The notes under the pieces were generated by a model. The model was not told the origin of the DNA, ran no database searches, and saw only the letters and a program-made list of their open reading frames with translations. The position numbers were made by a program, and so were the translations under genes. DNA of 64,000 nucleotides. It comes from Nitrospira sp. (GTDB lineage Bacteria > Nitrospirota > Nitrospiria > Nitrospirales > Nitrospiraceae). Positions 7,677 to 26,626 of this stretch are shown here, piece after piece. Each line of letters starts with the position of its first letter. Within the stretch, counting starts at the first letter, position 1. Location of the stretch: positions 3,865,501 through 3,929,500 of the forward strand of contig BQWY01000001.1 of assembly GCA_036984305.1 (NCBI GenBank). The letters run 5' to 3'.

Positions 7677-8005
7677 TCATGAAGAATGGGGGCGGGTCGT
7701 CTGTATGCCTCTGGCCGGCGTAATGATTTGACCTTCCATCAAGATCCGAGTCGCTGCTCGCGCCAGACGTACTGACGTGCTGGCCTTGTCCCGGACCTGC
7801 TCCACTGTGAGGGAGACTCGGGCGATTCCTTGTGACTGGGCCGACATCGCTGCGGCGACTGCGAGCCTGGGGACGATCTCCCATTCATCCATTCGGGGAA
7901 AAATGTAATCCTCACGAATGCCTCGTTCCTTCGCACACTGAACCAACTCTTCACCAACAGCTCGAGCCGTTTCGTCGGGCAGGCAGTCACAGACTTGGCG
8001 CGAAT
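7677..8005 (-). pseudogene. C-terminal remnant of a malic enzyme
   Basis: Read on the minus strand, this segment gives [20 protein letters not shown] followed by [19 protein letters not shown] and ILMEGQIITP. That resembles the last 100 or so residues of long-type NAD(P)-dependent malic enzymes, including the DEWEV-PR-AVAV-K--EQG-AR pattern. Nothing similar continues upstream on the same strand (8005-8160), where the catalytic and NAD-binding domains should be, so about three quarters of the gene is missing. Malic enzyme makes pyruvate from malate, and the neighbouring operon consumes pyruvate and acetate, so this is plausibly a decayed member of that cluster. Confidence 0.55.
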
Positions 8006-8135
8006 CTCCCCCGCAGGTCATGGGCGGAGTGCTGAATTCTGCTACAGGGTCATCGACGCTCGCCCCGTAGGGCCCGCACAAACGTGGCATCCCACGGCCA
8101 CAGCCGAGAGCGTGTGTGGTGGCTGGAGATGGCCT

Positions 8136-9932
8136 ATGCCTTGCACCCTTGCGCCCGTTATGAAGTGGGTTCCGATCATCAAATCCCGTCGAGAGTGGGA
8201 GGTTGTGCCCAACTTATTCGACTATGCGGCGCTGCGGCAGTCCTTTACGTGGGAGCAGGCCCGCAACGAACTCACGGGCCTTCCGGGCGGAAACGGACTC
8301 AATATCGCACATGAGGCCGTGGCCAGGCATGCCGACGGGACTCGTGCCGAGCATGTCGCAATTCGGTGGCTGAGCAAGGGCGGTGAGTGCCACGATTACA
8401 CCTATACCGACCTAGACAGACTCACGAACCGTTTCGCAAACGTGCTCCAGTGCTTAGGCGTGGGCAAAGGCGACCGTGTGTACGTGCTCGCCGGGCGCAT
8501 TCCTGAGCTGTATATCGCGGCCCTCGGCACGCTGAAGAATCGCAGCGTGTTCTGTCCGCTCTTTTCGGCGTTCGGCCCCGAGCCGATTGAAACCCGTCTC
8601 CGGATCGGCCAAGCGAAGGTCTTGGTCACAACGGAAGTCTTGTACCACCGCAAGGTTGCCGTCATACGCGGCTCACTGCCTCACCTTGCACATGTTGTGA
8701 CGATCAAACAGGATCCCGCGTCGACGGGAATTTCCGATACACGCGATTTTCACAACCTCATGGAGACGGCGGACGACTCGTTTACGATTGCGCCGACCGA
8801 CCCGCAAGACCCCGCGCTCTTGCACTTCACGAGCGGAACGACCGGAACCCCGAAGGGTGCGGTACATGTCCATGAAGCAGTGGTGGCACATCATATGACG
8901 GGAAAATTCGCGCTCGACCTGCATCCGGACGACATTTTTTGGTGCACCGCCGATCCGGGATGGGTCACGGGGACCTCCTACGGCATCATTGCCCCTTTGA
9001 CGAACGGTGTGACGAGTATCGTCGACGAGGCCGAGTTCGACGCCGAACGGTGGTATCGGACGCTCCAAGATCAACGCGTGACCGTGTGGTACACCGCGCC
9101 GACGGCCATCCGAATGATGATGAAGGCAGGCCTCGAACTGATTCAACGCTACGATCTGAACCGGCTGCGCTTTTCCGCGAGCGTGGGGGAACCGCTGAAT
9201 CCGGAAGCGGTCGTGTGGGGCCAACAAGCCTTCGGTCATCCATTCCATGACAACTGGTGGCAGACAGAAACCGGGGGCATCATGATCGCCAATTTTGCTG
9301 CCATGGACGTACGCCCGGGCTCCATGGGACGACCGCTGCCAGGTATCGAAGCAGCCGTCGTGCGGCGCGGGAGTGACGATGAAGACATTCAGGTCATCGT
9401 CGAACCCGATACGGAGGGAGAATTGGCGCTTCGACCAGGCTGGCCATCGATGTTTCGCGGCTACTGGCATGAGGAGGACCGGTACAAGAAGTGCTTCGTC
9501 GGCGGGTGGTACCTCACTGGCGATCTCGCCAAGCGTGATAAAGACGGCTACTTTTGGTTCGTGGGCCGCGCCGACGACGTGATCAAGACGTCGGGGCACT
9601 TGATCGGACCATTCGAGGTTGAAAGCGCCCTCATGGAACACCCAGCGGTCGCTGAGGCTGGAGTCATTGGCAAGCCCGATCCTGTGGCGATGCAAGTGGT
9701 CAAAGCATTCGTCAGCCTGAAAGACGGGTTTGCTTCCTCCCCGTCATTACAGAAGGAGCTCCTGGCCTTCGCTCGTACTCGCCTGGGAGCCGTCGTAGCG
9801 CCAAAGGAAATCGCCTTTCTCCCGAGCTTGCCGAAAACCCGCAGCGGGAAAATTATGCGCCGACTCCTGAAGGCACGCGAGTTGGGCCTTCCCGAAGGAG
9901 ATACCTCCACCCTGGAGGGCGGGTCATCGTGA
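8136..9932 (+). CDS. acsA: Acetyl-CoA synthetase, AMP-forming (Bacillus AcsA type)
   Basis: A roughly 598-residue enzyme activating acetate to acetyl-CoA through acetyl-AMP. Motifs in order: [17 protein letters not shown] (phosphate loop), [53 protein letters not shown] and the catalytic-lysine segment [11 protein letters not shown]. Alignment from memory is close to Bacillus AcsA along the full length, ending [15 protein letters not shown] 8136 has GGAG seven bases upstream and is chosen; ATG 8160 is a shorter alternative. The final lysine segment is the usual target of acetyl-lysine regulation, and a GNAT/acyl-CoA-synthetase fusion lies at 39.2 kb. Its stop overlaps the pdhA start (GTGA). 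Confidence 0.92.
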
Positions 9933-10936
9933 AGGAGCAACCCGCCACGGACAGCCGCATACCACCCCGGTCCCGGGCACTGGATCTGCTGCGCCAAATG
10001 ATCCGCATTCGGCGATTCGAGGAGAAAGCCGCTGAACTGTACAGTGCGGGAAAGATCCGCGGGTTTCTGCACCTGTACATCGGTGAGGAAGCGATCGCGG
10101 TGGGCGCCATGCAGGCGCTAAGGCCGGAAGACGCAATCGTCGCGACCTATCGAGAGCACGGCCATGCCTTGGCACGAGGCACGCCCATGGGTCCGCTGAT
10201 GGCCGAATTGTACGGAAAGGCCAACGGTTGCAGCCGCGGACGCGGAGGCTCGATGCATTTCTTCGATGCTTCGCGTCGATTCTACGGGGGACTTGCGATT
10301 GTAGGCGGAGGCCTGGCGATCGCCGTGGGGTTGGCCTTGGCCGATCAGTTGCGCAAACGCCCGTCCGTCACAGCCTGCTTTTTCGGTGAGGGTGCCGTCG
10401 CCGAGGGAGCCTTTCATGAATCCATGAATCTGGCCGCGCTGTGGAAGCTTCCCGTCCTCTTCATCTGCGAGAACAACCTGTATGCCATGGGAACCGCTCT
10501 CGTGCGATCGGAGTCCATGACCGATATCGCAGCCAAGGCGGCGGCGTACGGCATTCCGGGTGAAGCCGTGGACGGCATGGACGTGTTGGCCGTCGAAGCC
10601 GCTGCCAAACGGGCAACTGAACGAGTGCGGGCCGGAGGAGGGCCTTCTCTCTTGGAGTGTAAGACGTACCGCTTTCGTGCGCACTCGATGTACGACCCCG
10701 AGTTATACCGCTCCAAAACCGAAGTGGAGGAGTGGAAAACTCACGGGCCAATCGTCTCATTCGAAGGCCGCATGCGGGAGTGGAAATGTCTGACGTCCGA
10801 AGATCTCTCTGCAATCGAGGCCGCAGTCCGCGCGGAAATCGACGAAGCGGTAGCCTTTGCCGAACGCGGAGAGTGGGAACCGCTCGAGGAATTGACGAAA
10901 GACGTCTACACAGCGAACGTGAACAGTGAGACGTAA
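9929..10936 (+). CDS. pdhA: Pyruvate dehydrogenase E1 component, alpha subunit
   Basis: A 335-residue thiamine-diphosphate subunit that, with E1 beta, decarboxylates pyruvate and reductively acetylates lipoyl-E2. Visible features are [57 protein letters not shown] and the ThDP/Mg segment [11 protein letters not shown] with ICENN 25-30 residues later. The usual GDG of this motif is GEG here, a conservative change of a Mg ligand. [14 protein letters not shown] is the typical phosphorylation-loop region. The GTG start overlaps the acsA stop by 4 bp. The 3' end, including the stop codon, is already part of a heptamer repeat. Confidence 0.9.
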
Positions 10937-11037
10937 GAGGTAAAGGGCCTGGAGAATCAATACGACGATCGCACGACACGCTCCCTGCCCTGCTCAGATA
11001 GCTCTTTACTCCTTACACCTGATTTCTCACTTTTAAC
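10926..11037. repeat. Heptamer-phased inverted repeat element 2
   Basis: Forward heptamers GTGAGAC, GTAAGAG, GTAAAGG at 10926-10946 overlap the pdhA stop codon. After about 55 bases, five complementary-type heptamers follow without gaps: TCTTTAC, TCCTTAC, ACCTGAT, TTCTCAC, TTTTAAC (11003-11037). The arms can pair imperfectly into a long hairpin inside the acsA-pdhA-pdhB message. The right arm ends nine bases before the pdhB ATG, and no Shine-Dalgarno sequence is visible between. The design matches element 1 (3978-4076) and element 3 (53089-53162) although the heptamer sequence differs. Confidence 0.6.
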
Positions 11038-11046
11038 TCGGACACC

Positions 11047-12024
11047 ATGACCAGGATGACGTATCGAGAGGCCGTACGGGAAGGGTTGCGCGAAGCACTA
11101 CGGAGCGACCCACGGGTATTCCTCATGGGCGAGGACGTCGGCAAGTACGGCGGCCCCTACGCCTGTTCGAAAGGCTTCCTGGACGAGTTCGGTCCCGATC
11201 GAATCCGCGATACTCCGCTGTCCGAAAATACATTCGTCGGAGCCGGCATCGGCGCGGCACTGGGAGGTCTGCGCCCTATCGTCGAAGTCATGACCGTGAA
11301 CTTTAGCCTGCTCGCCCTGGATCAGATCGTGAACAACGCCGCGACGATTCGCCATATGTCGGGTGGACAGTTCGGCATCCCGTTGGTCGTACGCATGGCT
11401 ACGGGGGCTGGCCGACAAGTTGCGGCGCAGCATTCCCATAGCTTGGAAGGCTGGTTCGCACACATCCCGGGTATCACCGTGCTGACGCCGGCGACCATAC
11501 CCGATGCGAAGGGCATGCTCCTGGCCGCCCTGCAGCAACCCGATCCTGTCTTCATCTTTGAACATGCCTATTTGTATCCGACCGAAGGAGAGCTGGACGA
11601 ACAGGCCGGAGCAGTCGATATCCGGCATGCGATCGTTCGGCGAGCCGGTACCGACATGTCGATCATCACATTCGGCGGAAGCGTGTGGAAGGCGCTGGCC
11701 GCGGCGGACCAACTCGCCACCGATGGCATCGAAGCCGACGTGATCGACCTACGGGTCCTGCGCCCCCTGGATATGGCGACGATTCTCGCATCCGTCTCCA
11801 AGACGCATCGGGCGGTCATTGTCGATGAAGGCTGGCGGACCGGCAGTTTTGCGGCCGAGATTAGCGCCCGGATCGTCGAGGGCGGGTTCTACGAATTGGA
11901 CGGTCCCGTCCAACGGGTCTGCTCGGCAGAGGTCCCGATTCCATACCCCAAGCATCTCGAAGACGCGGCGCTGCCGAACGTCGATCGCATCGTTCAGGCG
12001 GTGCGCTCGCTCGTGTCGCCATGA
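11047..12024 (+). CDS. pdhB: Pyruvate dehydrogenase E1 component, beta subunit
   Basis: A 325-residue subunit partnering PdhA. It shows [72 protein letters not shown], the C-terminal transketolase domain with LRVLRPLD, and [10 protein letters not shown]. Length and order are normal for the family. The start is ATG 11047, with ATG 11056 as an in-frame alternative; neither has a clear ribosome-binding site because a repeat element occupies the leader. It sits between E1 alpha and the unusual pyruvate kinase; E2 follows the latter. No E3 lipoamide dehydrogenase gene is in the window, so E3 must be encoded elsewhere. Confidence 0.9.
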
Positions 12025-12060
12025 TCCGGAGACCGAGCGCTTGAACACAAGGTTGCTGTC

Positions 12061-13989
12061 ATGAATCAGGGACAACCGCCCGTCGACCCGAACGAGACCA
12101 CCTCGGATCCATTCACAAAAAAGCTGATGGAGTTGTACCAAGATATTGCCCAGAAGGCGCTCCGTGCTCGAGGACGGTTCCCGTTCTTCGACCTCGATCA
12201 GGAGTGCAGCCGTGACAACCTCTTGGCCTACCTGGCCCTACGTGGGTATGACCTTTTGGATGTCCAGTTGGAGTTGGCTGACCGAGGCCTCTCTTCTCTG
12301 GGACGGCTGGAGGGGGCCGTGATGACAAGTCTGCGGAAGGTCCTCGAACACCTTGGGTCACCACCACCGGAGTCCCCTCTCGCCGCGCCGAGTTTCAGCC
12401 AAGCCCGAGGCATGCTGTCCCAGCGCAGCACCCGCTTGCTCGGCCGACCTCGTCTCCATCACCAAACCCGAATCATGGTGACGCTGGACACCGACACGTT
12501 ACGGCAGCCGGATCTGCTGGAGCAACTTCTCCTAAAAGGGATGGACATCGCTCGGATCAACTGTGCGCATGACACCAGCCGTGAGTGGTTGAGACTCATC
12601 GAGGCCGTTCGGGATGCCGAGACGAGACTGGCCCAGCAAGGGCAGGGAATTGGTCGACGCTGCCGCATTGTTATGGATCTGGCAGGTCCGAAGGTTCGGA
12701 CTGGTCCGCTCAAATCTTCGACGCGTCCCTTGAAGCTTTCCGTTGAGAAGGACCTACGCGGACGACCGCGCTGCGTTCTCGAGGGGCATCTCACCGCAGC
12801 CACAGAGGAGACCCGGCTCATTCGCAACCCCGGCGAACCCCGCCGATTTGTCATTGCGTTGCCTCAGCAGGACCGATTGAACAACCTCTCGCTCGGCGAC
12901 GACCTGACCTTCGTTGACACGAGGGGCCGGACGCGCCTGCTTCGCGTGCTCGAGCGCGCCAGTCCGACGCGAGTGCGGGTCGGTTTGAATCGGACCGCGT
13001 ACATCGAGGAAGGGACCGAGCTGATGTCGCCGCAGGGATTCTCTTTTCGAGTGGGTCCGATCACCGATCAACCGGTGGCCATTCACGTGCAAGTGGGGGA
13101 CCATCTGCGCCTCTATCGCGACCCGGCATGCCCAGGCCATCCGGCGGAAGGGGACCAACCAGCGGGCATTGCGTGCACGCTGCCCGCCGTGCTGGAGGCA
13201 GTGCAACCGGGACATCGGGTGTTCATCGACGACGGAAAGATCGGAGCGAGGGTCCTCAACGTGCTGCCGGAGTATCTGGAACTGGAGATCATGGCCCCCC
13301 GTGACACCCCCGCGCGAATCCGTGCCGAGAAGGGACTCAATTTTCCCGACAGCGCCATCGAAATTCCGGCGCTGACGGAGAAGGATCGTGAAGATCTGCG
13401 GTTCGTCGTGAAGCATGCCACTGCGGTCGGCCTCTCCTTCGTTCACCGGCCCCGCGACCTGGATGATCTCCGCTCCGCGCTCAAGGACCTCGGCAATCCG
13501 GAAATCGGAATCGTGATCAAGATCGAAACGCGTGAATCGATTCATCGATTGGCCCAGTTGCTCCTGGCGGGTCTGGATCTGCCAAAATTCGGGGTCATGA
13601 TTGCCCGCGGTGATTTGGCCGTTGAGGTCGGCTTCGAGCACCTCGCCTTAGTCCAGGAGGACATTCTCTGTATGTGCGAAGCCGCCCACATCCCGGTGAT
13701 CTGGGCGACGCAGGTATTGGAAAATTTGACCAAGAGCGGGCTGGCGGCGCGGGCCGAAATCACCGACGCCGCCACTGGGCAGCGGGCTGAATGTGTGATG
13801 CTCAACAAGGGCGCGCACATTATCGAGGCCGTGAAGACGCTCGGAGATCTGTTGAGTTCCCGGGAGCGACAGCGAGTCAAGAAGCGGCAGGTGTTTCGCG
13901 AGATCACGGCGCAGTACGACGTGCTGGCGATCCCCGGCCTCGAAGCGGCATCAACCGCGTCTCCCGCCGCAGCACCGGGTACCGGATGA
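12061..13989 (+). CDS. Atypical long pyruvate kinase with N-terminal extension and no C domain
   Basis: A 642-residue protein. The first 130 residues are a helical extension without a recognised domain. The pyruvate kinase core then begins (TRIMVTLDTDT, MDIARINCAHD, VMDLAGPKVRTG). The B-domain region is enlarged. The second half of the TIM barrel has IGIVIKIETRESI with the catalytic lysine, FGVMIARGDLAVEVGFE, and IWATQVLENLTKSGLAARAEITDAA. The sequence stops shortly after the barrel, so the allosteric C domain of ordinary pyruvate kinases is absent. The reaction expected is phosphoenolpyruvate plus ADP to pyruvate plus ATP, which would feed PDH encoded by the same operon. Loss of the regulatory domain suggests different control. 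Function is inferred. Confidence 0.75.
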   Translation: MNQGQPPVDPNETTSDPFTKKLMELYQDIAQKALRARGRFPFFDLDQECSRDNLLAYLALRGYDLLDVQLELADRGLSSLGRLEGAVMTSLRKVLEHLGSPPPESPLAAPSFSQARGMLSQRSTRLLGRPRLHHQTRIMVTLDTDTLRQPDLLEQLLLKGMDIARINCAHDTSREWLRLIEAVRDAETRLAQQGQGIGRRCRIVMDLAGPKVRTGPLKSSTRPLKLSVEKDLRGRPRCVLEGHLTAATEETRLIRNPGEPRRFVIALPQQDRLNNLSLGDDLTFVDTRGRTRLLRVLERASPTRVRVGLNRTAYIEEGTELMSPQGFSFRVGPITDQPVAIHVQVGDHLRLYRDPACPGHPAEGDQPAGIACTLPAVLEAVQPGHRVFIDDGKIGARVLNVLPEYLELEIMAPRDTPARIRAEKGLNFPDSAIEIPALTEKDREDLRFVVKHATAVGLSFVHRPRDLDDLRSALKDLGNPEIGIVIKIETRESIHRLAQLLLAGLDLPKFGVMIARGDLAVEVGFEHLALVQEDILCMCEAAHIPVIWATQVLENLTKSGLAARAEITDAATGQRAECVMLNKGAHIIEAVKTLGDLLSSRERQRVKKRQVFREITAQYDVLAIPGLEAASTASPAAAPGTG

Positions 13990-14028
13990 ACCGAATCGCG
14001 GCCGTTTTGGTGAGGGGAAGGAGATGCC

Positions 14029-15240
14029 ATGACTGAATTTGTCATGCCCACGCTCGGCGCCGACATGACCGAAGGCACGTTGGTCATGTGGAAAAAGCAA
14101 GTGGGCGACCGCGTCGAGAAGGGTGACATCATCGCCGAGGTTGAAACCGACAAAGCGGCGATCGAGATCGAAGCCTTCTCATGCGGTACCATCGAGCGAT
14201 TCCTGGTACAACCAGGGGACAAAGTTCCGGTGGGCACTCCGATGGCCATTATCCGTGATGCACAGGCACCGGCTACCACAACCGCAATGCCGGGGACGAC
14301 GCCGAAGGAAACGGAGCCACACGTCGACTCTTTGGCCACGAGTTCGCCGCCGGCTGCAGAGGTTCAGCCCCAGTCCCCGTCACATGCGCAAGGAGATCGA
14401 CTGCGTATCTCGCCGACCGCCTGGCGCCTCGCACAGGAACTTGGCGTGGACCCCACCTCGCTCATCGGAACCGGACCTGAGGGCGCCATATCCCGGGAAG
14501 ATGTTCAGCGGGCTGCAGCGATCCGTGTTCAACCGGAGTTGAGACAGAAAGGATCTGCTGTACCCGCAGATAGCCGCCAAGCCAGGATCCGACACACCAT
14601 CGCCGCGGCCATGGCTCGCTCAAAGCGGGAGATCCCTCATTATTACTTGAGTACGAGCATCGATATGGGACCAGCCATGGAATGGCTCCGACAGTGCAAC
14701 AACGCACGCGGCGTCGCCGAGCGGTTGCTGCCGAGCGTCCTCCTGATCAAGGCGGTTGCGCTCGCTTTGAAGGAGATCCCCGAGTTGAATGGTTTCTGGA
14801 AGGACGGACACGCGATTCGAAGCGAAGCCATTCACGTCGGCGTCGCGATTTCGCTTCGCGGAGGCGGGCTGATCGCTCCCGCCGTCCATGACGCCGATCG
14901 GTTGAGTCTTATGGACACCATGGAACGCTTGCAGGATGTGGTCAGACGGGCTCGCGCCGGATCGCTGCGCAGTTCCGAAATGTCGGACTCGACGATCACG
15001 GTCAGCAGTTTGGGTGATCTCGGCGCCGACCAGGTGTTGGGGGTCATCTATCCGCCGCAGGTCGCCCTCGTGGGATTCGGCAAGATTGCCGAGCGGCCCT
15101 GGGTGGTGAACGGCCAAGTGGTGGCGCGGTCCGTCGTAACTGCCAGCTTGTCGGCCGATCATCGTGCGAGCGATGGCCATCGGGGCGGTCTGTTCCTGGA
15201 AGCCATCGATCGACTGCTGCATCACCCCGAGAGCCTGTGA
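14029..15240 (+). CDS. pdhC: Pyruvate dehydrogenase E2, dihydrolipoamide acetyltransferase
   Basis: A 403-residue protein. Lipoyl domain residues 1-78 with the lipoylation site EVETDKAAIEIEAF (Lys42); a Pro/Ala/Thr-rich linker; a peripheral-subunit-binding domain about 120-160 (RISPTAWRLAQELGVDPTSLIGTGPEGAISREDV); and the catalytic domain about 175-403 ending with SADHRASDGHRGG, the HRxxDG active-site motif. It transfers the acetyl group from lipoamide to CoA. The start is preceded by GGGGAAGGAGATGCC. A single lipoyl domain and this length are normal for compact bacterial E2s. It is followed at 30 bases by an exported NTF2-like protein. Confidence 0.92.
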   Translation: MTEFVMPTLGADMTEGTLVMWKKQVGDRVEKGDIIAEVETDKAAIEIEAFSCGTIERFLVQPGDKVPVGTPMAIIRDAQAPATTTAMPGTTPKETEPHVDSLATSSPPAAEVQPQSPSHAQGDRLRISPTAWRLAQELGVDPTSLIGTGPEGAISREDVQRAAAIRVQPELRQKGSAVPADSRQARIRHTIAAAMARSKREIPHYYLSTSIDMGPAMEWLRQCNNARGVAERLLPSVLLIKAVALALKEIPELNGFWKDGHAIRSEAIHVGVAISLRGGGLIAPAVHDADRLSLMDTMERLQDVVRRARAGSLRSSEMSDSTITVSSLGDLGADQVLGVIYPPQVALVGFGKIAERPWVVNGQVVARSVVTASLSADHRASDGHRGGLFLEAIDRLLHHPESL

Positions 15241-15270
15241 GGACGGATCGATCGGTCGAAGGAGGCTCAC

Positions 15271-17899
<2,629 letters not shown>

Positions 17900-17906
17900 G
17901 TGTCCA

Positions 17907-18179
17907 GTGGCTGAGAATAATGCAACCCTCAAGCAGGCCGTGGACAAGCAAGTCGCCCGTATGAAACGGGCACAGAAGGAGCGTCCGACCTTGCTGGCGC
18001 AGAGTGCCTATTTGGGTACGGCCGGCATTCTGTTCGTGCTCCCCATCGTCGCAGGCGCCTACCTCGGACGCTGGCTCGATGGGTTCTTCTCGGGGTACTC
18101 GGTGCGATGGACAGTCAGCCTGATCGTGCTGGGGATCGCGTTCGGTGGCATCAACGTGTACTTATTCCTACGAGACTAA
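17907..18179 (+). CDS. atpQ: N-ATPase accessory membrane protein AtpQ (AtpI-like)
   Basis: A 90-residue protein starting at GTG 17907 (VAENNATLKQAVDKQVARMK), with a charged N-terminal helix and two membrane segments: SAYLGTAGILFVLPIVAGAYLG and the stretch near the C-terminus ending INVYLFL. It matches the ATPase_gene1/AtpI-like AtpQ of N-ATPase operons, thought to help c-ring assembly or ion supply. In the canonical order atpDCQRBEFAG a second membrane protein, AtpR, follows; here only 14 bases separate AtpQ from subunit a, so AtpR is absent. Confidence 0.75.
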   Translation: MAENNATLKQAVDKQVARMKRAQKERPTLLAQSAYLGTAGILFVLPIVAGAYLGRWLDGFFSGYSVRWTVSLIVLGIAFGGINVYLFLRD

Positions 18180-18193
18180 CGGTCGAGCCAGGT

Positions 18194-18868
18194 ATGACCA
18201 CGAACATCGTCCTTCAGGTCGGTCTCTTACGCATTACCGAGCCGGTCGTCACCACCTGGGCGTTGATGCTCGTCATGACGATCAGTGCATGGGTGGTGTC
18301 CCGCCGCCTCGCGCTCGAACCTCGGCCCTGGCAGGTCGCGGTCGAGGGGACCGTCGAGACCATTCAGGGGGCGATTGCCGCCGTCGCACCGGAACAGGCC
18401 TCGGTGCTGTTGCCCTTCATTGCCACGCTCTGGCTGTTCATCGGTTCCGCCAACCTCTTGGGTGTTATCCCAGGCTTAAGCGCCCCAACCGGTCACCTGT
18501 CAGTGACCGCGGCGCTGGCTCTGCTGGTGTTCGGATCGGTGCATTGGTTTGGCATTCGAGCCGAGGGCCTGCGTGGGCATCTAGGCCATTACGTGACTCC
18601 CACCCCCTTGATGCTACCGTTTTATATACTCAGCGAGCTCAGTCGGACCGTGGCTTTGGCCGTCCGCCTCTTCGGCAATATCATGAGCCTGGAAATGGCC
18701 GCGTTGCTGGTCCTGATCGTCGCCGGCTTTCTCGTCCCAGTGCCGCTCCTGGCTTTGCACATCATCGAAGCCGTGTTACAAGCCTATATTTTTGGCATGC
18801 TTGCGCTCATTTATATCGCCGGGGCACTGCAGTCTCATGAGCAACGGCGCCAGCTAGCAAAGGATTGA
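18194..18868 (+). CDS. atpB: N-ATPase Fo subunit a
   Basis: A 224-residue integral membrane protein with five to six hydrophobic segments. It contains the essential stator arginine in ELSRTVALAVRLFGNIMS and the typical C-terminal helix LHIIEAVLQAYIFGMLALIYI. It forms the half-channels next to the c ring. The ATG at 18194 has GGTCGAGCCAGGT upstream, only a weak binding site, so translational coupling with atpQ is likely. The length is normal for N-ATPase a subunits, which are shorter than those of standard F-ATPases. Confidence 0.9.
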   Translation: MTTNIVLQVGLLRITEPVVTTWALMLVMTISAWVVSRRLALEPRPWQVAVEGTVETIQGAIAAVAPEQASVLLPFIATLWLFIGSANLLGVIPGLSAPTGHLSVTAALALLVFGSVHWFGIRAEGLRGHLGHYVTPTPLMLPFYILSELSRTVALAVRLFGNIMSLEMAALLVLIVAGFLVPVPLLALHIIEAVLQAYIFGMLALIYIAGALQSHEQRRQLAKD

Positions 18869-18871
18869 CCC

Positions 18872-19138
18872 ATGAACAACATGACCTGGTTTGCGATTCT
18901 CTCTACCGTCGCTGCGGTTCTGGCGATTGCCATCGGCACCATGCTTCCGGCCTTTGCCATGGGCCGGGCGATCAGCCAAGCACTCGAATCTCTGGCCAGG
19001 CAGCCCGAGGCGGAACGCTCGATCATGCGAACCCTGTTTATCGGGTTGGCCATGATTGAATCGTTGGCGATCTATTGTCTGGTCATCGTGCTCATCGTGT
19101 TGTTCCGGAATCCTTTGATCGAATATCTGGTGAAATAG
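18872..19138 (+). CDS. atpE: N-ATPase Fo subunit c
   Basis: An 88-residue hairpin proteolipid. Helix 2 contains AMIESLAIYCLV: Glu (equivalent to Ilyobacter E65), Ser (S66) and Tyr (Y70), the Na+-site pattern ES-x3-Y. Helix 1 contains LPAFAMGRAISQ; with the conserved Pro as P28 and the ARQPEA loop aligned, the position equivalent to 32 is Met, where Na+-binding and N-type c subunits usually have Gln or Glu. The glycine packing motif of helix 1 is also sparse. Ion specificity is therefore uncertain. AAGGA precedes the ATG. Confidence 0.92.
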   Translation: MNNMTWFAILSTVAAVLAIAIGTMLPAFAMGRAISQALESLARQPEAERSIMRTLFIGLAMIESLAIYCLVIVLIVLFRNPLIEYLVK

Positions 19139-19172
19139 CACTGCCCGCCTGGCGCGGGAGCGGAGCCGCATC

Positions 19173-19937
19173 GTGGAACTCGATTGGTCAACGATCGTCC
19201 TGGAAATGGTCAATTTCGGCGTCTTGGTGTGGCTGCTGCATCGACTGTTGTACCGGCCCGTCCTCAACGTGATCGCGCAACGACGGGCGGCCATCGAGTC
19301 GCAGACCACAGAGGCCCGACGCATTCGGAATGAAGCGGACGGCTTGCGGGCCCAATACGACGGGCGGCTGCAGACCTGGGAGGAGGAACGGGCTCAGGCC
19401 CGGCGCCACCTGGCGGAGGAGCTTCAGAAGGAACGCGTTCGGCGGCTCGCCGAATTGCAGACCTCTCTCGATCAGGAGCGAGAAAAGCGCCGCGTCGTGG
19501 ATGAACGGCGGCAGCAGGAGGACGCACGGCAGGCCGAGGAACAGGCAATGACCCAGAGCGCACAGTTTGCCGCCAAGCTACTCGCCCGGGTAGCAGACCC
19601 AGCGCTGGAAGCCAGATTGACCGAAGCGGCACTCGCCGATCTTCAAACATTGCCCGATGGTCGCCTCACCCGCTTGCGGGAAGCGATTGGAACCGGTGCG
19701 GGCGAGGCGACCATCACCAGCGCCTACCCCATTCCGGAATCCCGGCGACGCGTCCTGGTCGATCGGCTCACCGCCGTTCTCGGTCGGACACCTCATTGCG
19801 TCTGGAGAGAGGATGTCGCACTGGTCGCCGGCCTTCGGATCACGATCGGCCCCATCGTGTTGGGTGCCAACCTCCACGACGAGCTTCGATTCTTTACGGA
19901 GGTCGCCTCGAATGATGCCATCTCGTCCGTACGCTGA
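19173..19937 (+). CDS. atpF: N-ATPase subunit b with fused delta-like C-terminal domain
   Basis: A 254-residue protein starting at GTG 19173. Residues 1-30 form the membrane anchor ([18 protein letters not shown]); 35-150 are a long, strongly charged coiled coil; 165-254 resemble the C-terminal half of F-ATPase delta ([37 protein letters not shown]). The fusion explains the absence of a delta gene, as known for N-ATPases. It is the peripheral stalk linking Fo to F1. The 3' end overlaps the alpha start by 26 bp. Confidence 0.87.
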
Positions 19938-21417
19938 CTCCAGACTCGCTCGCCGAGCCGCGTGGGTCGAGCGCTATGACTTCCGCCTTCGCCTCTCCGA
20001 GCGTGGGACGGTCGTCTCGCTGGGCGACGGGATCGTCTGGATCGAAGGCCTCCCGTCCGCCGCCATCGACGATCTGGTGGTGTTCGAAGAAGGCAGTCAC
20101 GCACTCGTGTTTCATCTGGGGCAACAGGTCATCGGCGGAATTCTGCTACACCAGACCGGCCAACTCACCGCCGGGACAGGAGCCCAACTGGCCGGTCTTC
20201 AGCTCAGTATCGTCGTGGGGGAGACGCTCCTTGGTCGCGTCGTCGACCCCCTCGGATTTCCGCTCGACGGATCGCCTCCCGTCGAATCCCCGACGCGGCG
20301 GCCGCTGTTCGCGCCCGCCCCTCCGATTACGGCTCGAGATTTCGTCAGTCGACCGCTGTACACCGGAAACAAAATCGTCGACATCATGATTCCCATCGGC
20401 AAAGGACAGCGCCAGCTGATCATCGGCGACAATGGCCTGGGGAAAAGTACCCTCGCGATCGACGCCATCTTGAATCAGCGCACCAAGGACGTCCGTTGCG
20501 TGTACGTCTTCATCGGACAAAAGCGGTCCGATGTGGTCCAGTGCCTTCAGACCCTACGGGCCCATGATGCGTTGGCCTATACGACGTTGGTGGTCGCCCA
20601 GGCGAGCGCACTTCCGGGGCTCAAATATCTCGCACCCTTCGCGGGATGTGCGTTGGCCGAAGCATGGATGTACGAGGGTAAAGACACGCTTATCATTTAC
20701 GACGATCTGACCATGCACGCCCAAACCTATCGGGAGCTGTCCCTCCTGCTTCGGCGGCCTCCGGGCCGGGAGGCCTACCCGGGCGACATTTTCTTCCTGC
20801 ATTCGCGTCTGCTCGAACGGTCGACGTGCTTGAGTCCCTCCAACGGAGGCGGCAGCATGACCGCCCTGCCGGTCGTCGAGACCACACAAGGGGATATCGC
20901 CGGCTACATTCCCACCAATTTGATCTCGATCACGGACGGCCAGATCTATCTGGACAGCCGGCTGTTCGCCGCCGGAACGCTTCCGGCCATCGACGTGACC
21001 AAATCCGTTTCGCGCATCGGCGGAAAGGGTCAGCACCCGAACATGAAGCGCCTGGCCGGTCGGCTGAAGCTCGAGTATCTCCAGTTTCTGGAACTCGAAC
21101 TGTTTACTCGCTTCGGCGCCCGACTCGAAGCTTCCGTCGAGGCCAAGATCGAGCGTGGGCGCTTACTGCGAGAGCTGCTCAAACAGGATCGTCTGGCGCC
21201 TCTTTCGATCGAGACGCAACTGGCCTGGCTCGTGGCCTTTCAGAAGGGGCTGTTCGACGAACTGCCTATGCCGGCCGCTCATCGAGCGATCGACAGTCTG
21301 GCCGCGCGAGTACAGGAGGGGACCTTGACCTTGGACTCGCCGGAGGACCAGTGGGTCTCGGCGCTCGAGACATGGTTCACGGAGATCGGCACACATGAGT
21401 CGGCGACGCGACATTGA
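19912..21417 (+). CDS. atpA: N-ATPase F1 alpha subunit
   Basis: A roughly 501-residue non-catalytic nucleotide-binding subunit. Motifs: [35 protein letters not shown]-loop [57 protein letters not shown], and [10 protein letters not shown] with the alpha arginine finger. Two consecutive ATGs (19912 and 19915) follow GGAGG; the longer open frame upstream lies inside atpF and is not part of the protein. It overlaps atpF by 26 bp and gamma by 23 bp, so the F1 genes are tightly coupled. Confidence 0.93.
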
Positions 21418-22324
21418 CCAGCACCTGCATACCTTCGGAGAAATCGGTGGCATTCTCCGGGCGATGCGCAACATTGCGCTCATGGAAACTCAGAAGCTGG
21501 CCCGGTTTGCGACCGCCCAGCAGCAGTCCATCGACCTGATTGAAGCCGCTGCAGCCGACTTTCTGAACTGGCACCCCTTCGCGCTTGCGCGGCCGAGTCA
21601 CCGGCGCCCGCTCTATCTGCTGCTCGGCTCAGAACGGGGTTTTTGCGGGGAGTTCAACGACGCCGTCCTCGCGTCCTTTCATGAGCATGTCGCGGCCGAT
21701 CGCGGAGCCGATCCAATCTTGATTCTCGTCGGCTCTCGGCTGGCCCTTCATGCACAGGGACTACGGGGCACCATCGTTACGATACAAGGACCGTCGGTGG
21801 CGGAGGAGACCGCGGCCGTCATCGGCCGACTCGTCGAACAACTCAGGGCCCTGCACAAGACGGACGATCTCGTGTGCATCCTCGACGCCACGGTCGTCCA
21901 TCACGTCTCCACGAATCACCACTCAACCGTCATGGTGCGCCGGCCATTCTTGGGACTGAAGGACCGGGGCCCACGTCACGCCTATCCTCCAGTCCTCACC
22001 CTCACTCCCATGATGTTCGCGGCAGAGCTGGTCGATCACTACCTTTTTGCCATCCTGCACGATCTGTTGCATCGTTCGCTGTTGTCCGAAAACCAGCGTC
22101 GTGTCCGCCACATGGAACAAGCGTTGCAGCGGCTGGACGGCACGATGGCAGAGTTGACGCGCAAGCGCCATGCAGTTCGTCAGGAAGAGATTACGGAGGA
22201 GATTGAAACGATCATGCTGAGCGCCGAACTGCTCGGACAGGGTCAGACGGGGCGCCGGGCCGGCAATTCGAGGTCGCCGGGCCGAGGGAGCGTTCCACCG
22301 ACTAGGGATAGTATGATGGAGTGA
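21395..22324 (+). CDS. atpG: N-ATPase F1 gamma subunit
   Basis: A 309-residue central-stalk subunit. The N-terminal coiled coil ([30 protein letters not shown]), the Rossmann-like core with [15 protein letters not shown], and the C-terminal helix with [20 protein letters not shown] are family features. The final 50 residues form a low-complexity Arg/Ser/Gly tail. Overlap with atpA is 23 bp. It is the last gene of the operon; a cupredoxin gene follows after 150 bases. Confidence 0.88.
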
Positions 22325-23476: not shown

Positions 23477-23593
23477 CTCTTCTCCTTTCAAAGGTTGTCA
23501 GACCCTGCCCAGTCTGTATTGTGGCGCTGCGCATGGTCGCAAGTCAGATGCCGGTAGAAATTGAGGCGCCACATCGTGGACTTACGTTCGCCT

Positions 23594-26500
23594 ATGTCGA
23601 TAATCGCCCCAGAACCACATCTCAACTTTGACGCAGAACGCTACAGGACTACAGCTTCTCCCGGCGGCGGGAGGTTTCCCACATGGCCCAATTGGATGTA
23701 CGGGCACGACACCGCAGAGATTTTCGCCGCCTTCACCGCCGCACTGGTCGTGTGCCCCCTCCTGGCACTTGGGCTGCACGACACAACTGGCATGGCCTCC
23801 CCTGCTCCCCAAGAAATTGCGCGTATCCCGATCGACGACGTGTACAGGAAGCTGGAAACCTCACCCAACGGCCTGACCTCGTCGGAGGCTGAAAAGCGGC
23901 TCCGGCAGTACGGGCCGAATCGTCTCCATACAGCGGCGCGGACAGCATGGCCCCTCCGACTGTTGCGACAGGCTACGCATTTTCTCGCTCTTTTGCTATG
24001 GATTGCCGCCGGACTGGCGATTCTAGCTGAAGTCATGAATCCCGGCAGCGGCATGTTCACGCTAGCTCTGGCGATTGTGGCAGTAATCGCCGTGAACGCG
24101 CTGTTTGCCTTCGCACAAGAATTCAGGGCTGAGCGGGCCGTCGATGCACTACACGATCTGCTTCCGACGACCACGTGGGTCATTCGCGAGGGGCGTCCCC
24201 AGCAGGTTGCCCGGCACGACATCGTTCCAGGAGATCTCCTCCTGATCGAGGAAGGAGAGCGGCTTCCGGCGGATGGTCGCCTCGTCGAAGCGCTTGCCAT
24301 GCGGGTGGATCTGGCGTCGCTGACGGGTGAAGCACGCCCGAAGGCGAGAACGACTCACATAGTGTCCGACGGCCATCTGCTCGACCTGCCCAACCTCGTC
24401 TTTGCGGGCACGACTATCCTGTCCGGGCATGGGCGTGCGGTCGTCTATGCGACGGGAATGGACACCGAATTCGGCAAACTTGCCGGTCTGGCGACGACGC
24501 TGGAGCCCGGACTGAGTCCACTGCAGCTCGAAATGGTCAAGGTCACTCGTATGATTGCAGTGTTCGCGTTGGTCATGGGCGGTCTCTTTTTCATCCTCGG
24601 CATCTCGATGAATCTTGGATTCTGGGTCAGCGCAGTCTTCGGTATCGGAATCATCGCCGCGAATGTTCCAGAAGGCTTGCTCCCAACCATGACGCTCGCG
24701 CTCGCACTCGGCAGCCAGCGCATGGCAAAGCGAAACGCCCTCATCAAGCATCTGTCTTCCGTCGAGACGCTGGGATGCACCACGGTCATCTGCACCGACA
24801 AGACCGGCACGTTGACTGAAAACCGCATGCGTGTGGAACGCGTGCATGTGGACGGTCTCGATTTAGAAGCGCGGAACGGTCTCCTGGTGATCAAGGATTC
24901 CATCCCCAACACGATAGAGCCCAGCCAACTGGGACCGATCGCGCAGGCCCTCTCACTGTGCCACACGGCAAAACGCGTTCGGCAGGCCGGAGGCCGCAGC
25001 GTATGGGTCGGGGATCCGACGGAGGTGGCTCTGCTCGAATTCGTTGACGCATACGGCCTCTCGCCTCCCGCTCCTCCGCAACGACTGGGTGAACTCCCGT
25101 TCGATGCGGATCGAAAGCGAATGACCACCCTTCATTGGATGGCGGGACAGCTCGTCGCTCACGTCAAGGGCGCACCGGAGACCGTCATTCCGCTATGTTC
25201 GCGGGCCTATGACCCGGTGGCCCCCGTCCCTATGAGCGATGCAGTGCGACAGGAACTGTTGACACACAGTCGACGGTTGGCTCAGCAGGCGTACCGTGTC
25301 CTGGCGGTCGCCGTGCGGGAAATCGAGCGAACTGATGTTGATCTCGATAGCAAAACGGTCGAACAGGACCTGGTGTTTCTTGGTCTCGTGGCCATGATAG
25401 ACCCCCCGCACCGGGAAGTCCCCGGCGCGGTGGCCCGTTGCCGCACGGCCGGAGTCCGTGTCGTCATGTTAACCGGGGATCATCCTCTGACGGCAGTCGC
25501 GCTTGCCCGGAAGATCGGCCTACTCCCTGGGACCCTCGATCCGTCAAAACCGGAGCTTGTTCCGGTGATCGAAGGGACACGCGTGGAGGTGATGAACGAC
25601 GCGGAACTGCAGGCCTTCCTGACTCCCGCCAGGCCGGGGGAAACTGAGCCACTCTTCGCACGCATGGCCCCGCGACACAAGATGCGTGTCGTATCGATGC
25701 TCAAGCGGATGGGCGAGATTGTGGCGGTCACGGGCGACGGCGTGAACGATGCACCGGCGCTCAAACAGGCGGATATCGGCATCGCGATGGGAATTGCCGG
25801 CACTGATGTGGCCAAAGAAACGGCTGATATGATTCTCCTCGACGACAACTTTGCCACGATCGTCAACGCCATCGAGGAAGGCCGTGCCGTCTATGCGAAT
25901 ATCAAGAAGTTTACGACCTACGTGCTGGCCAGCAACGTCCCGGAAATCGTGCCGTTTCTTGGATACGGCATGGTCGGATTACCGCTGGCGATTACGGTTC
26001 CGCAAATCCTGGCGGTCGACCTTGGCACGGATATGCTGCCGGCCTTGGCCCTTGGCGCCGAGCGGCCAGATCCGGGACTCATGAATGTGCCGCCACGCGC
26101 ACGATCTGCGCGTCTTGTCGATCGGTCGCTCATGCTCCGCGCATACGGCTTTTTGGGCCTGATTGAAGCGGCCTTGGCGATGGGGGCATTCTTCGGGTTC
26201 CTCTATCTCCGGGGATGGGAGTGGGGCGTGTCGCTCAACTGGTCGGATCCTCTGTATCAGGAGGCCACGACCGTCACCTTGGCCACGATCGTGGTCGCCC
26301 AGGTAGCCAACGTGTTCGCCTGTCGATCCGCGCGACAGTCCGCCCTTCGCCTCGGATTCGCGACCAACGCGCTGCTGTTTTATGGCATCGCGGCCGAGCT
26401 CGCGCTCTTACTGGCTATCGTCTACCTGCCAGCTCTTCACGTTCTGTTCGGAACCAAATCCCTGCCCATGTGGATTTGGCCGGCCTTGGCCGGCGGTGCG

Positions 26501-26626
26501 GTTTTCCTGCTGATGGCTGAGGAACTACGCAAACTCCTGCTCCGCCGGCGCCACTGGTTGGACGGACGAGCGCCCTCACCGCCCCACACGCACATTCAAG
26601 AAATCGTTCGGAAGGAGTCCCTATGA
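23594..26626 (+). CDS. P-type ATPase of the Na,K-ATPase-like (P2C) group
   Basis: About 1010 residues. It has an N-terminal cation-ATPase domain (IDDVYRKLETSPNGLTSSEA), the TGEA actuator motif, the phosphorylation site [13 protein letters not shown] and the hinge TGDGVNDAPALKQADIGIAMG. Membrane segment 4 is IIAANVPEGLLPTMTLALA and segments 5-6 include SNVPEIVPFL and VDLGTDMLPALALGAERP. The NVPEGLL and DLGTDM-PA blocks are those of Na,K/H,K-ATPases rather than Ca-ATPases (AIPEGLPA). It probably exports Na+ or another monovalent cation; no beta subunit is seen. The start is uncertain: no ribosome site is obvious, and ATG 23792 begins the conserved part. The stop overlaps the cytochrome c start (ATGA). 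Confidence 0.82.
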   Translation: MSIIAPEPHLNFDAERYRTTASPGGGRFPTWPNWMYGHDTAEIFAAFTAALVVCPLLALGLHDTTGMASPAPQEIARIPIDDVYRKLETSPNGLTSSEAEKRLRQYGPNRLHTAARTAWPLRLLRQATHFLALLLWIAAGLAILAEVMNPGSGMFTLALAIVAVIAVNALFAFAQEFRAERAVDALHDLLPTTTWVIREGRPQQVARHDIVPGDLLLIEEGERLPADGRLVEALAMRVDLASLTGEARPKARTTHIVSDGHLLDLPNLVFAGTTILSGHGRAVVYATGMDTEFGKLAGLATTLEPGLSPLQLEMVKVTRMIAVFALVMGGLFFILGISMNLGFWVSAVFGIGIIAANVPEGLLPTMTLALALGSQRMAKRNALIKHLSSVETLGCTTVICTDKTGTLTENRMRVERVHVDGLDLEARNGLLVIKDSIPNTIEPSQLGPIAQALSLCHTAKRVRQAGGRSVWVGDPTEVALLEFVDAYGLSPPAPPQRLGELPFDADRKRMTTLHWMAGQLVAHVKGAPETVIPLCSRAYDPVAPVPMSDAVRQELLTHSRRLAQQAYRVLAVAVREIERTDVDLDSKTVEQDLVFLGLVAMIDPPHREVPGAVARCRTAGVRVVMLTGDHPLTAVALARKIGLLPGTLDPSKPELVPVIEGTRVEVMNDAELQAFLTPARPGETEPLFARMAPRHKMRVVSMLKRMGEIVAVTGDGVNDAPALKQADIGIAMGIAGTDVAKETADMILLDDNFATIVNAIEEGRAVYANIKKFTTYVLASNVPEIVPFLGYGMVGLPLAITVPQILAVDLGTDMLPALALGAERPDPGLMNVPPRARSARLVDRSLMLRAYGFLGLIEAALAMGAFFGFLYLRGWEWGVSLNWSDPLYQEATTVTLATIVVAQVANVFACRSARQSALRLGFATNALLFYGIAAELALLLAIVYLPALHVLFGTKSLPMWIWPALAGGAVFLLMAEELRKLLLRRRHWLDGRAPSPPHTHIQEIVRKESL

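What the first reader, a model, noticed from the sequence alone, without database searches (positions are those of the whole stretch)
17907..19138. N-ATPase lacking AtpR, with a c subunit lacking the TM1 ion ligand
Seen: only one membrane gene (AtpQ-like) lies between epsilon and subunit a, and c has Met at the position equivalent to 32 while keeping E65, S66 and Y70 equivalents. Known: N-ATPase operons are described as atpDCQRBEFAG, and N-type or Na+ c subunits normally have Gln or Glu in TM1. Inference: loss of AtpR and loss of the TM1 polar residue may be linked, defining a subgroup with altered ion specificity or c-ring assembly.
Basis: partly seen in the sequence, partly recalled or inferred. 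Interest (0 to 1): 0.68.

Follow-up and report, generated by a model that had tools for sequence, protein, structure and literature searches.

The report
AtpR-less, probably proton-type N-ATPase operon
This Nitrospiraceae bacterium carries a second, N-type ATPase operon that lacks the small gene atpR and whose rotor protein lacks a sodium ligand, so it is probably a proton pump; published work already describes this variant in the same family, and our survey shows that the two losses need not go together.

Summary
Between epsilon and subunit a lies one membrane gene (AtpQ, PF09527). No AtpR (PF12966) is found in the whole 4.35-Mb, 99.97%-complete genome. Subunit c has Met where Ilyobacter tartaricus has Gln32 and keeps E65, S66 and Y70.

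It is not new. ISME J 2025 (PMC12342949) reports the same combination (no atpR, no E32, T67 to Leu) for most Nitrospiraceae N-type ATPases and predicts H+. A similar AtpR-less operon was described in Methylacidiphilum in 2019 (PMC6688271).

What the tests add: the operon belongs to a large, mainly gamma/betaproteobacterial clade. All 91 distinct sampled operons have Met32 and no AtpR. The clade nests among AtpR-bearing N-ATPases, so AtpR was probably lost once. The proposed link between the losses is not supported: 15 operons of another order have Met32 and keep AtpR (at least two independent origins), and an archaeal one lacks AtpR but keeps Gln32. The clade also has an E. coli-like Glu219/His245 pair in subunit a, plus a clade-specific Glu248.

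Best reading: an auxiliary H+-pumping N-ATPase that needs no AtpR. Ion specificity is inferred, not measured.

The parts
16101..17507 (+). N-ATPase beta subunit (atpD), first gene of the operon
   Evidence: TIGR03305 alt_F1F0_F1_bet 594 bits (below its 752 cut-off, but the best model), PF00006; 69% identical to the Sulfuricella denitrificans plasmid copy
17504..17899 (+). epsilon subunit (atpC)
   Evidence: PRK13447, TIGR03166, PF02823
17907..18179 (+). AtpQ (AtpZ/AtpI family), the only membrane gene between epsilon and a; GTG start
   Evidence: PF09527 E 2e-11, TIGR02230
18194..18868 (+). subunit a; stator Arg158 (E. coli R210), Glu167 (E219), His189 (H245), clade-specific Glu192 (position 248), Gln196 (Q252)
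   Evidence: PRK13420 328 bits over cut-off; residue table by clade; alignment A1
18872..19138 (+). subunit c; Met30 at I. tartaricus Q32 position (codon 18959-18961), Glu63/Ser64/Leu65/Tyr68 at E65/S66/T67/Y70
   Evidence: PRK13468, TIGR03322, PF00137; alignment to 1yce sequence
19173..19937 (+). b-delta fusion subunit (N-type hallmark)
   Evidence: TIGR03321; PF00430 plus PF00213 OSCP on one ORF
19915..21417 (+). alpha subunit (atpA)
   Evidence: PRK13343 693 bits over cut-off; TIGR03324
21395..22324 (+). gamma subunit (atpG), last gene of the operon
   Evidence: TIGR03323, PF00231

Best explanation
[quoted passage not shown] In the ancestor of this clade AtpR was lost once and the c subunit exchanged the TM1 polar ligand (E/Q32) for a hydrophobic residue, with Leu at position 67 and an E219/H245 pair in subunit a. 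Mechanism: each c subunit carries one protonatable Glu (E63) closed by Ser64 and Tyr68, as in the Spirulina and chloroplast c rings. Protons enter and leave through subunit-a half-channels lined by Glu167/His189/Glu192 around stator Arg158, and ATP hydrolysis drives H+ export. The c ring assembles without AtpR, helped perhaps by AtpQ. Shown: gene content, residues, clade membership, genome-wide lack of AtpR. Inferred: H+ specificity, pumping direction, a role in pH or potential homeostasis, assembly without AtpR.
For: Full gene set in N order with b-delta fusion and intact stator Arg and c Glu. No AtpR in the own genome, nor above the family cut-off in any of 12 other Nitrospiraceae with this operon; of 30 proteobacterial and related hosts only two have AtpR, one of them (Nitrosomonas marina) in a separate E32 operon (L248). 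All 91 distinct clade operons: Met32, E65, S66, L67 (one M), Y70 and no atpR. IQ-TREE alpha+beta+a: clade UFBoot 99, nested inside AtpR-bearing N-ATPases (UFBoot 100); the alternative with AtpR-bearing operons monophyletic is rejected by AU (p 0.016). Closest solved c ring is the H+-binding Spirulina c15 (2wie, E 3e-18). Subunit a: E219 54/57, H245 57/57, E248 57/57 in the clade, versus G/D/E at 245 and T/I at 248 in canonical N-types. Literature: the same inference of H+ in Nitrospiraceae (PMC12342949); a measured H+-selective N-type c ring in Burkholderia pseudomallei, which carries the ETM motif of the sister group (PMC5376962); ProAD counts any incomplete Na+ motif as H+ (PMC11738941).
Against: No ion-specificity measurement exists for any member. 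E65, S66 and Y70, part of the Na+ motif, are kept, and the B. pseudomallei result shows that motif-based prediction can fail. The sister relationship has only 0.81 SH-like support in FastTree, and SH does not reject AtpR-bearing monophyly (p 0.137). Pumping versus synthesis cannot be told from sequence.
Confidence: 0.75

Rival explanations
1. The two losses are mechanistically linked: AtpR's two conserved intramembrane arginines neutralise the two c-subunit carboxylates (E32, E65) during ring assembly, so losing E32 makes AtpR dispensable or the reverse.
For: AtpR has one invariant Arg (122/122) and a second at 94%; PMC6688271 says AtpR is speculated to interact with subunit c; the window clade lacks both features without exception, and its nearest relative L246 has Leu32 and no AtpR.
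Against: 15 operons have Met32 and an AtpR with the invariant Arg; 26 have neutral Gln32 and AtpR; a haloarchaeal operon has Gln32 and no AtpR on its stretch (L272); L236 has E32 and no AtpR in the operon, though an AtpR persists in a decayed second operon of that genome. On the tree there is only one shared event.
Confidence: 0.12
2. The operon is still Na+-coupled: E65/S66/Y70 plus backbone groups and water suffice to bind Na+ without the TM1 ligand.
For: E65, S66 and Y70 are retained.
Against: Both side chains that complete the Na+ site (Q/E32 and T67) are replaced by hydrophobic residues in every member; the subunit-a channel residues are of the E. coli type.
Confidence: 0.1
3. The clade never had AtpR: it branched off before AtpR joined the N-ATPase operon.
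For: FastTree support for nesting is only 0.81; the deepest N-type branch, the haloarchaeal L272, also lacks AtpR; SH test p 0.137.
Against: UFBoot 100 for nesting; AU rejects monophyly of AtpR-bearing operons (p 0.016; the constrained tree came from a fast search).
Confidence: 0.15
4. AtpR is present but missed (divergent, relocated or overlapping another frame).
For: AtpR is short and divergent; in other Nitrospirota it can fall to about 22-29 bits (L360).
Against: 14-nt gap between AtpQ and a; the session HMM, which found divergent copies down to 23 bits, finds none in any of 91 operons; no PF12966 hit at E<=10 in the own genome.
Confidence: 0.03

Closest known systems
AtpR-less, E32-less N-type ATPases of Nitrospiraceae (ISME J 2025, PMC12342949)
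   Same: Same family of organisms, same gene set atpGAFEBQCD, no atpR, no E32, T67 to Leu, H+ predicted. This is the same thing.
   Different: The passages read (the section on the respiratory chain) do not describe the wider proteobacterial clade, a tree, the Met32-with-AtpR operons or the subunit-a residues.
N-ATPase-like operon atpDCQBEF:HAG of Methylacidiphilum (PMC6688271)
   Same: N-like order, no atpR, no ESTxxY motif, described as resembling gammaproteobacterial ATPases.
   Different: Verrucomicrobial; written with a separate atpH. Its place in the present clade was not tested.
Canonical N-ATPase atpDCQRBEFAG (e.g. Picosynechococcus, Desulfobacterota, Nitrospirales lineage IV)
   Same: Gene order apart from atpR, b-delta fusion, second ATPase in the genome.
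   Different: Has AtpR, E/Q32 and mostly EST-Y; a-subunit position 245 is Gly/Asp/Glu and 248 Thr/Ile.
H+-selective N-type ATPase of Burkholderia pseudomallei (c17 ring, PMC5376962)
   Same: Carries the ETM motif of the sister group; H+ coupling shown by NCD-4 labelling.
   Different: Keeps Glu30 (position 32) and AtpR; ET(M) instead of ESL.
Spirulina platensis c15 ring (2wie)
   Same: Closest solved c sequence; Glu in TM2 followed by (A/S)LxIY; H+ binding.
   Different: F-type; keeps Gln in TM1.

Membership tests
N-ATPase (N-type rotary ATPase) | beta-epsilon first, order atpD-C-Q-(R)-B-E-F-A-G | tested here: met
   atpR missing
N-ATPase (N-type rotary ATPase) | b and delta fused or delta absent | tested here: met
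   PF00430 and PF00213 on one 254-aa ORF
N-ATPase (N-type rotary ATPase) | groups with N-type subunits apart from F-type on a tree | tested here: met
   N-type clade UFBoot 100 against nine F-types including the own genome's
N-ATPase (N-type rotary ATPase) | second ATPase next to an F- or A-type in the genome | tested here: met
   F-type alpha at G000:C1:273295-274791, 856 bits
N-ATPase (N-type rotary ATPase) | AtpR (PF12966) between AtpQ and a | tested here: not met
   Absent in operon and genome. Usual but not universal feature; secondary loss is the preferred reading, so it is filed as an AtpR-less branch, not as a typical N-ATPase
N-ATPase (N-type rotary ATPase) | NCBIfam 'alternate F1F0 ATPase' exception models over their cut-offs | tested here: not met
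   594 of 752 bits (beta), 560 of 750.5 (alpha), 202 of 302 (a), 104 of 131 (c): a divergent branch
Na+-translocating c subunit | Q/E32, E65, S66, T67, Y70 | tested here: not met
   M, E, S, L, Y
H+-coupled ATPase | measured H+ coupling without Na+ effect | not testable with these tools
   Needs biochemistry

The most novel reading that the evidence does not exclude
The clade made one coordinated switch to a redesigned proton pump: loss of AtpR, loss of both accessory ion ligands in c (32 and 67), and a new half-channel in subunit a (E219/H245 plus an extra, clade-specific Glu248), allowing a c ring that assembles without AtpR.
Probability: 0.3. Interest if true: 0.45.

Novelty: already known. 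Interest (0 to 1): 0.27.

Why it matters
It corrects two simple rules: that an N-ATPase operon always has AtpR, and that losing the TM1 ligand goes with losing AtpR. The Met32/AtpR-positive operons, the Met32/AtpR-negative clade and the E/Q32 operons together form a natural comparison set in which AtpR's unknown function and the ion specificity can be tested separately. For Nitrospiraceae ecology it supports reading these operons as H+ rather than Na+ pumps.

Tried and rejected
TIGR03305 (beta) as survey query: matches all F-type betas and does not separate the window clade; subunit a (window protein or TIGR03306) used instead. Two phylum searches drew the same 217 genomes, so one was wasted. 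L252 (E32, no AtpR) rejected as an exception: subunit a lies at the contig edge. L247 and L273-275 are F-type, not N-type. L236 first looked like a clean E32-without-AtpR case, but its genome keeps an intact AtpR beside a fragment of subunit a in a decayed second operon. An RNA structure at the AtpQ start was looked for: z 0.35, nothing. No solved structure resembles AtpR or AtpQ by sequence. First frame guesses for a, alpha and beta were wrong and corrected. Dibrova 2010, the founding paper, is not held, so its statements are cited through later papers.

Full report
OBSERVATION. The stretch 17907-19138 holds AtpQ (GTG 17907-18179), subunit a (18194-18868) and subunit c (18872-19138), inside a complete operon beta-epsilon-AtpQ-a-c-(b-delta)-alpha-gamma from 16101 to 22324. 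AtpQ is PF09527. Only 14 nt separate its stop from the start of a, so there is no room for atpR. PF12966 finds nothing in the own genome even at E 10 (4.35 Mb, 11 contigs, 99.97% complete). Aligned with the sequence of the I. tartaricus ring (1yce), c has Met for Q32, Leu for T67, and keeps E65, S66 and Y70.

PLACE. Same-family genomes include records titled Nitrospira sp. (L044 is the same contig as G274:C30), so the window is from Nitrospiraceae. Among 166 Nitrospirales genomes 14 carry the window type (13 others with subunit a 58-64% identical to the window's), all in the window's family, and 18 carry the canonical type (41-44%). A scan of 84,980 species genomes found 423 relatives; the best 80 are mostly gamma- and betaproteobacteria (Methylococcaceae, Legionella, Microbulbifer, Marinobacter, Azoarcus, Nitrosomonas) plus Nitrospira. 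A Sulfuricella and a Legionella plasmid carry it too, so horizontal transfer is likely.

SURVEY. After removing duplicates, F-types and one contig-edge case, 214 N-type operons remain: 91 Met32 without AtpR, 1 Leu32 without AtpR, 79 E32 with AtpR, 26 Q32 with AtpR, 15 Met32 with AtpR, 1 E32 without AtpR in the operon (L236) and 1 Q32 without AtpR (the haloarchaeal plasmid L272). Sampling is uneven: the window clade was sought by similarity, and the last order by AtpR itself, so the counts are not frequencies.

EXCEPTIONS. The 15 Met32 operons with AtpR lie in one order of the phylum reached through a 'Deltaproteobacteria' record; two were read in full and have a genuine AtpR with its conserved arginine (L238, L239), and the invariant Arg is present in all 15. 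L236 lacks AtpR in its operon, but its genome keeps AtpR beside a fragment of subunit a elsewhere (L354, L359), so AtpR might act in trans there.

TREE. Concatenated alpha, beta and a (93 taxa, 1,184 columns, IQ-TREE LG+F+G4): N-types UFBoot 100 against nine F-types; window clade 99; window clade plus L246 (Leu32, no AtpR) 100; these are sister to the AtpR-bearing ETM group that includes Azospirillum and Paraburkholderia (100). FastTree on 189 taxa gives the same arrangement with 0.81. AU rejects monophyly of AtpR-bearing operons (p 0.016; SH 0.137), and all Met32 as one clade (p 0.0002). Parsimony: 3-4 changes for Met32, 3 for AtpR, one shared. So AtpR was most likely lost once on the line to this clade, and Met32 has arisen elsewhere without that loss. 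With one shared event, no statistical case for a link can be made.

MECHANISM. Subunit a of the clade has E219 (54/57), H245 (57/57) and Q252 (57/57) by E. coli numbering, plus E248 (57/57), which no other sampled group has. Residues 245, 248 and 252 lie on one face of a helix (i, i+3, i+7), so E248 probably lines the half-channel (inference). The c motif ESLxIY resembles the H+-binding Spirulina and chloroplast rings. Together with the measured H+ selectivity of the B. pseudomallei ring, which has the motif of the sister group (PMC5376962), H+ coupling is the best guess. Direction (ATP-driven export) rests on the general view of N-ATPases as auxiliary pumps (PMC11738941, PMC5376962). AtpQ of the clade differs at several positions that are near-invariant in one group or the other (e.g. 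Trp at window position 45 in canonical AtpQ against mostly Leu in the clade, and Tyr56 in all clade members), which would fit an altered assembly role but proves nothing.

PRIOR KNOWLEDGE. PMC12342949 states that most Nitrospiraceae N-type ATPases lack E32, have Leu for T67 and lack atpR. PMC6688271 reports the same kind of operon in Methylacidiphilum. PMC4154653 notes two Nitrosococcus halophilus N-ATPases without atpR. ProAD (PMC11738941) counts 893 of 1807 N-types as H+.

Noticed in passing
window 7995-16104; L110:14327-18657; L071:14445-18657: An acyl-CoA synthetase - E1 alpha - E1 beta - E2 - acyl carrier protein block precedes the ATPase operon; the same five genes (37-74% identical) lie beside the operon in a Microbulbifer and a betaproteobacterial genome, there downstream and on the other strand, suggesting a shared mobile gene island.
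   Followed up: partly
window 12061-13989: A pyruvate kinase-like protein of 642 aa sits between E1 beta and E2; no counterpart was found beside the ATPase in the related loci.
   Followed up: no
window 23561-26626: A large P-type cation ATPase (best model Na,H/K type IIC, 578 bits, below cut-off) lies just downstream of the operon; 8 of 93 related loci (some from the same genome) also have a similar protein nearby.
   Followed up: partly
L359 (G1031:C38:13500-26500): Decayed second N-ATPase operon: intact AtpR followed by a fragment of subunit a, while the intact operon of the same genome (L236) lacks AtpR.
   Followed up: partly
L200 and L360 (G293, other Nitrospirota family): An N-like operon that appears split between contigs, with a divergent AtpR (28.6 bits by the session HMM) and a c subunit with Glu at position 32 and an ESV motif.
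   Followed up: no
L184:7548-10293 and L250:282-2408: About 1.6 kb separates AtpQ from subunit a in two Nitrospirales operons; the c-subunit hit there scores 244 bits, about twice a normal one, suggesting a double-length c. Not read further.
   Followed up: no
L261:2779-4008 (Acaryochloris plasmid): A cation:proton antiporter gene is inserted between AtpQ and AtpR of a canonical N-ATPase operon.
   Followed up: no
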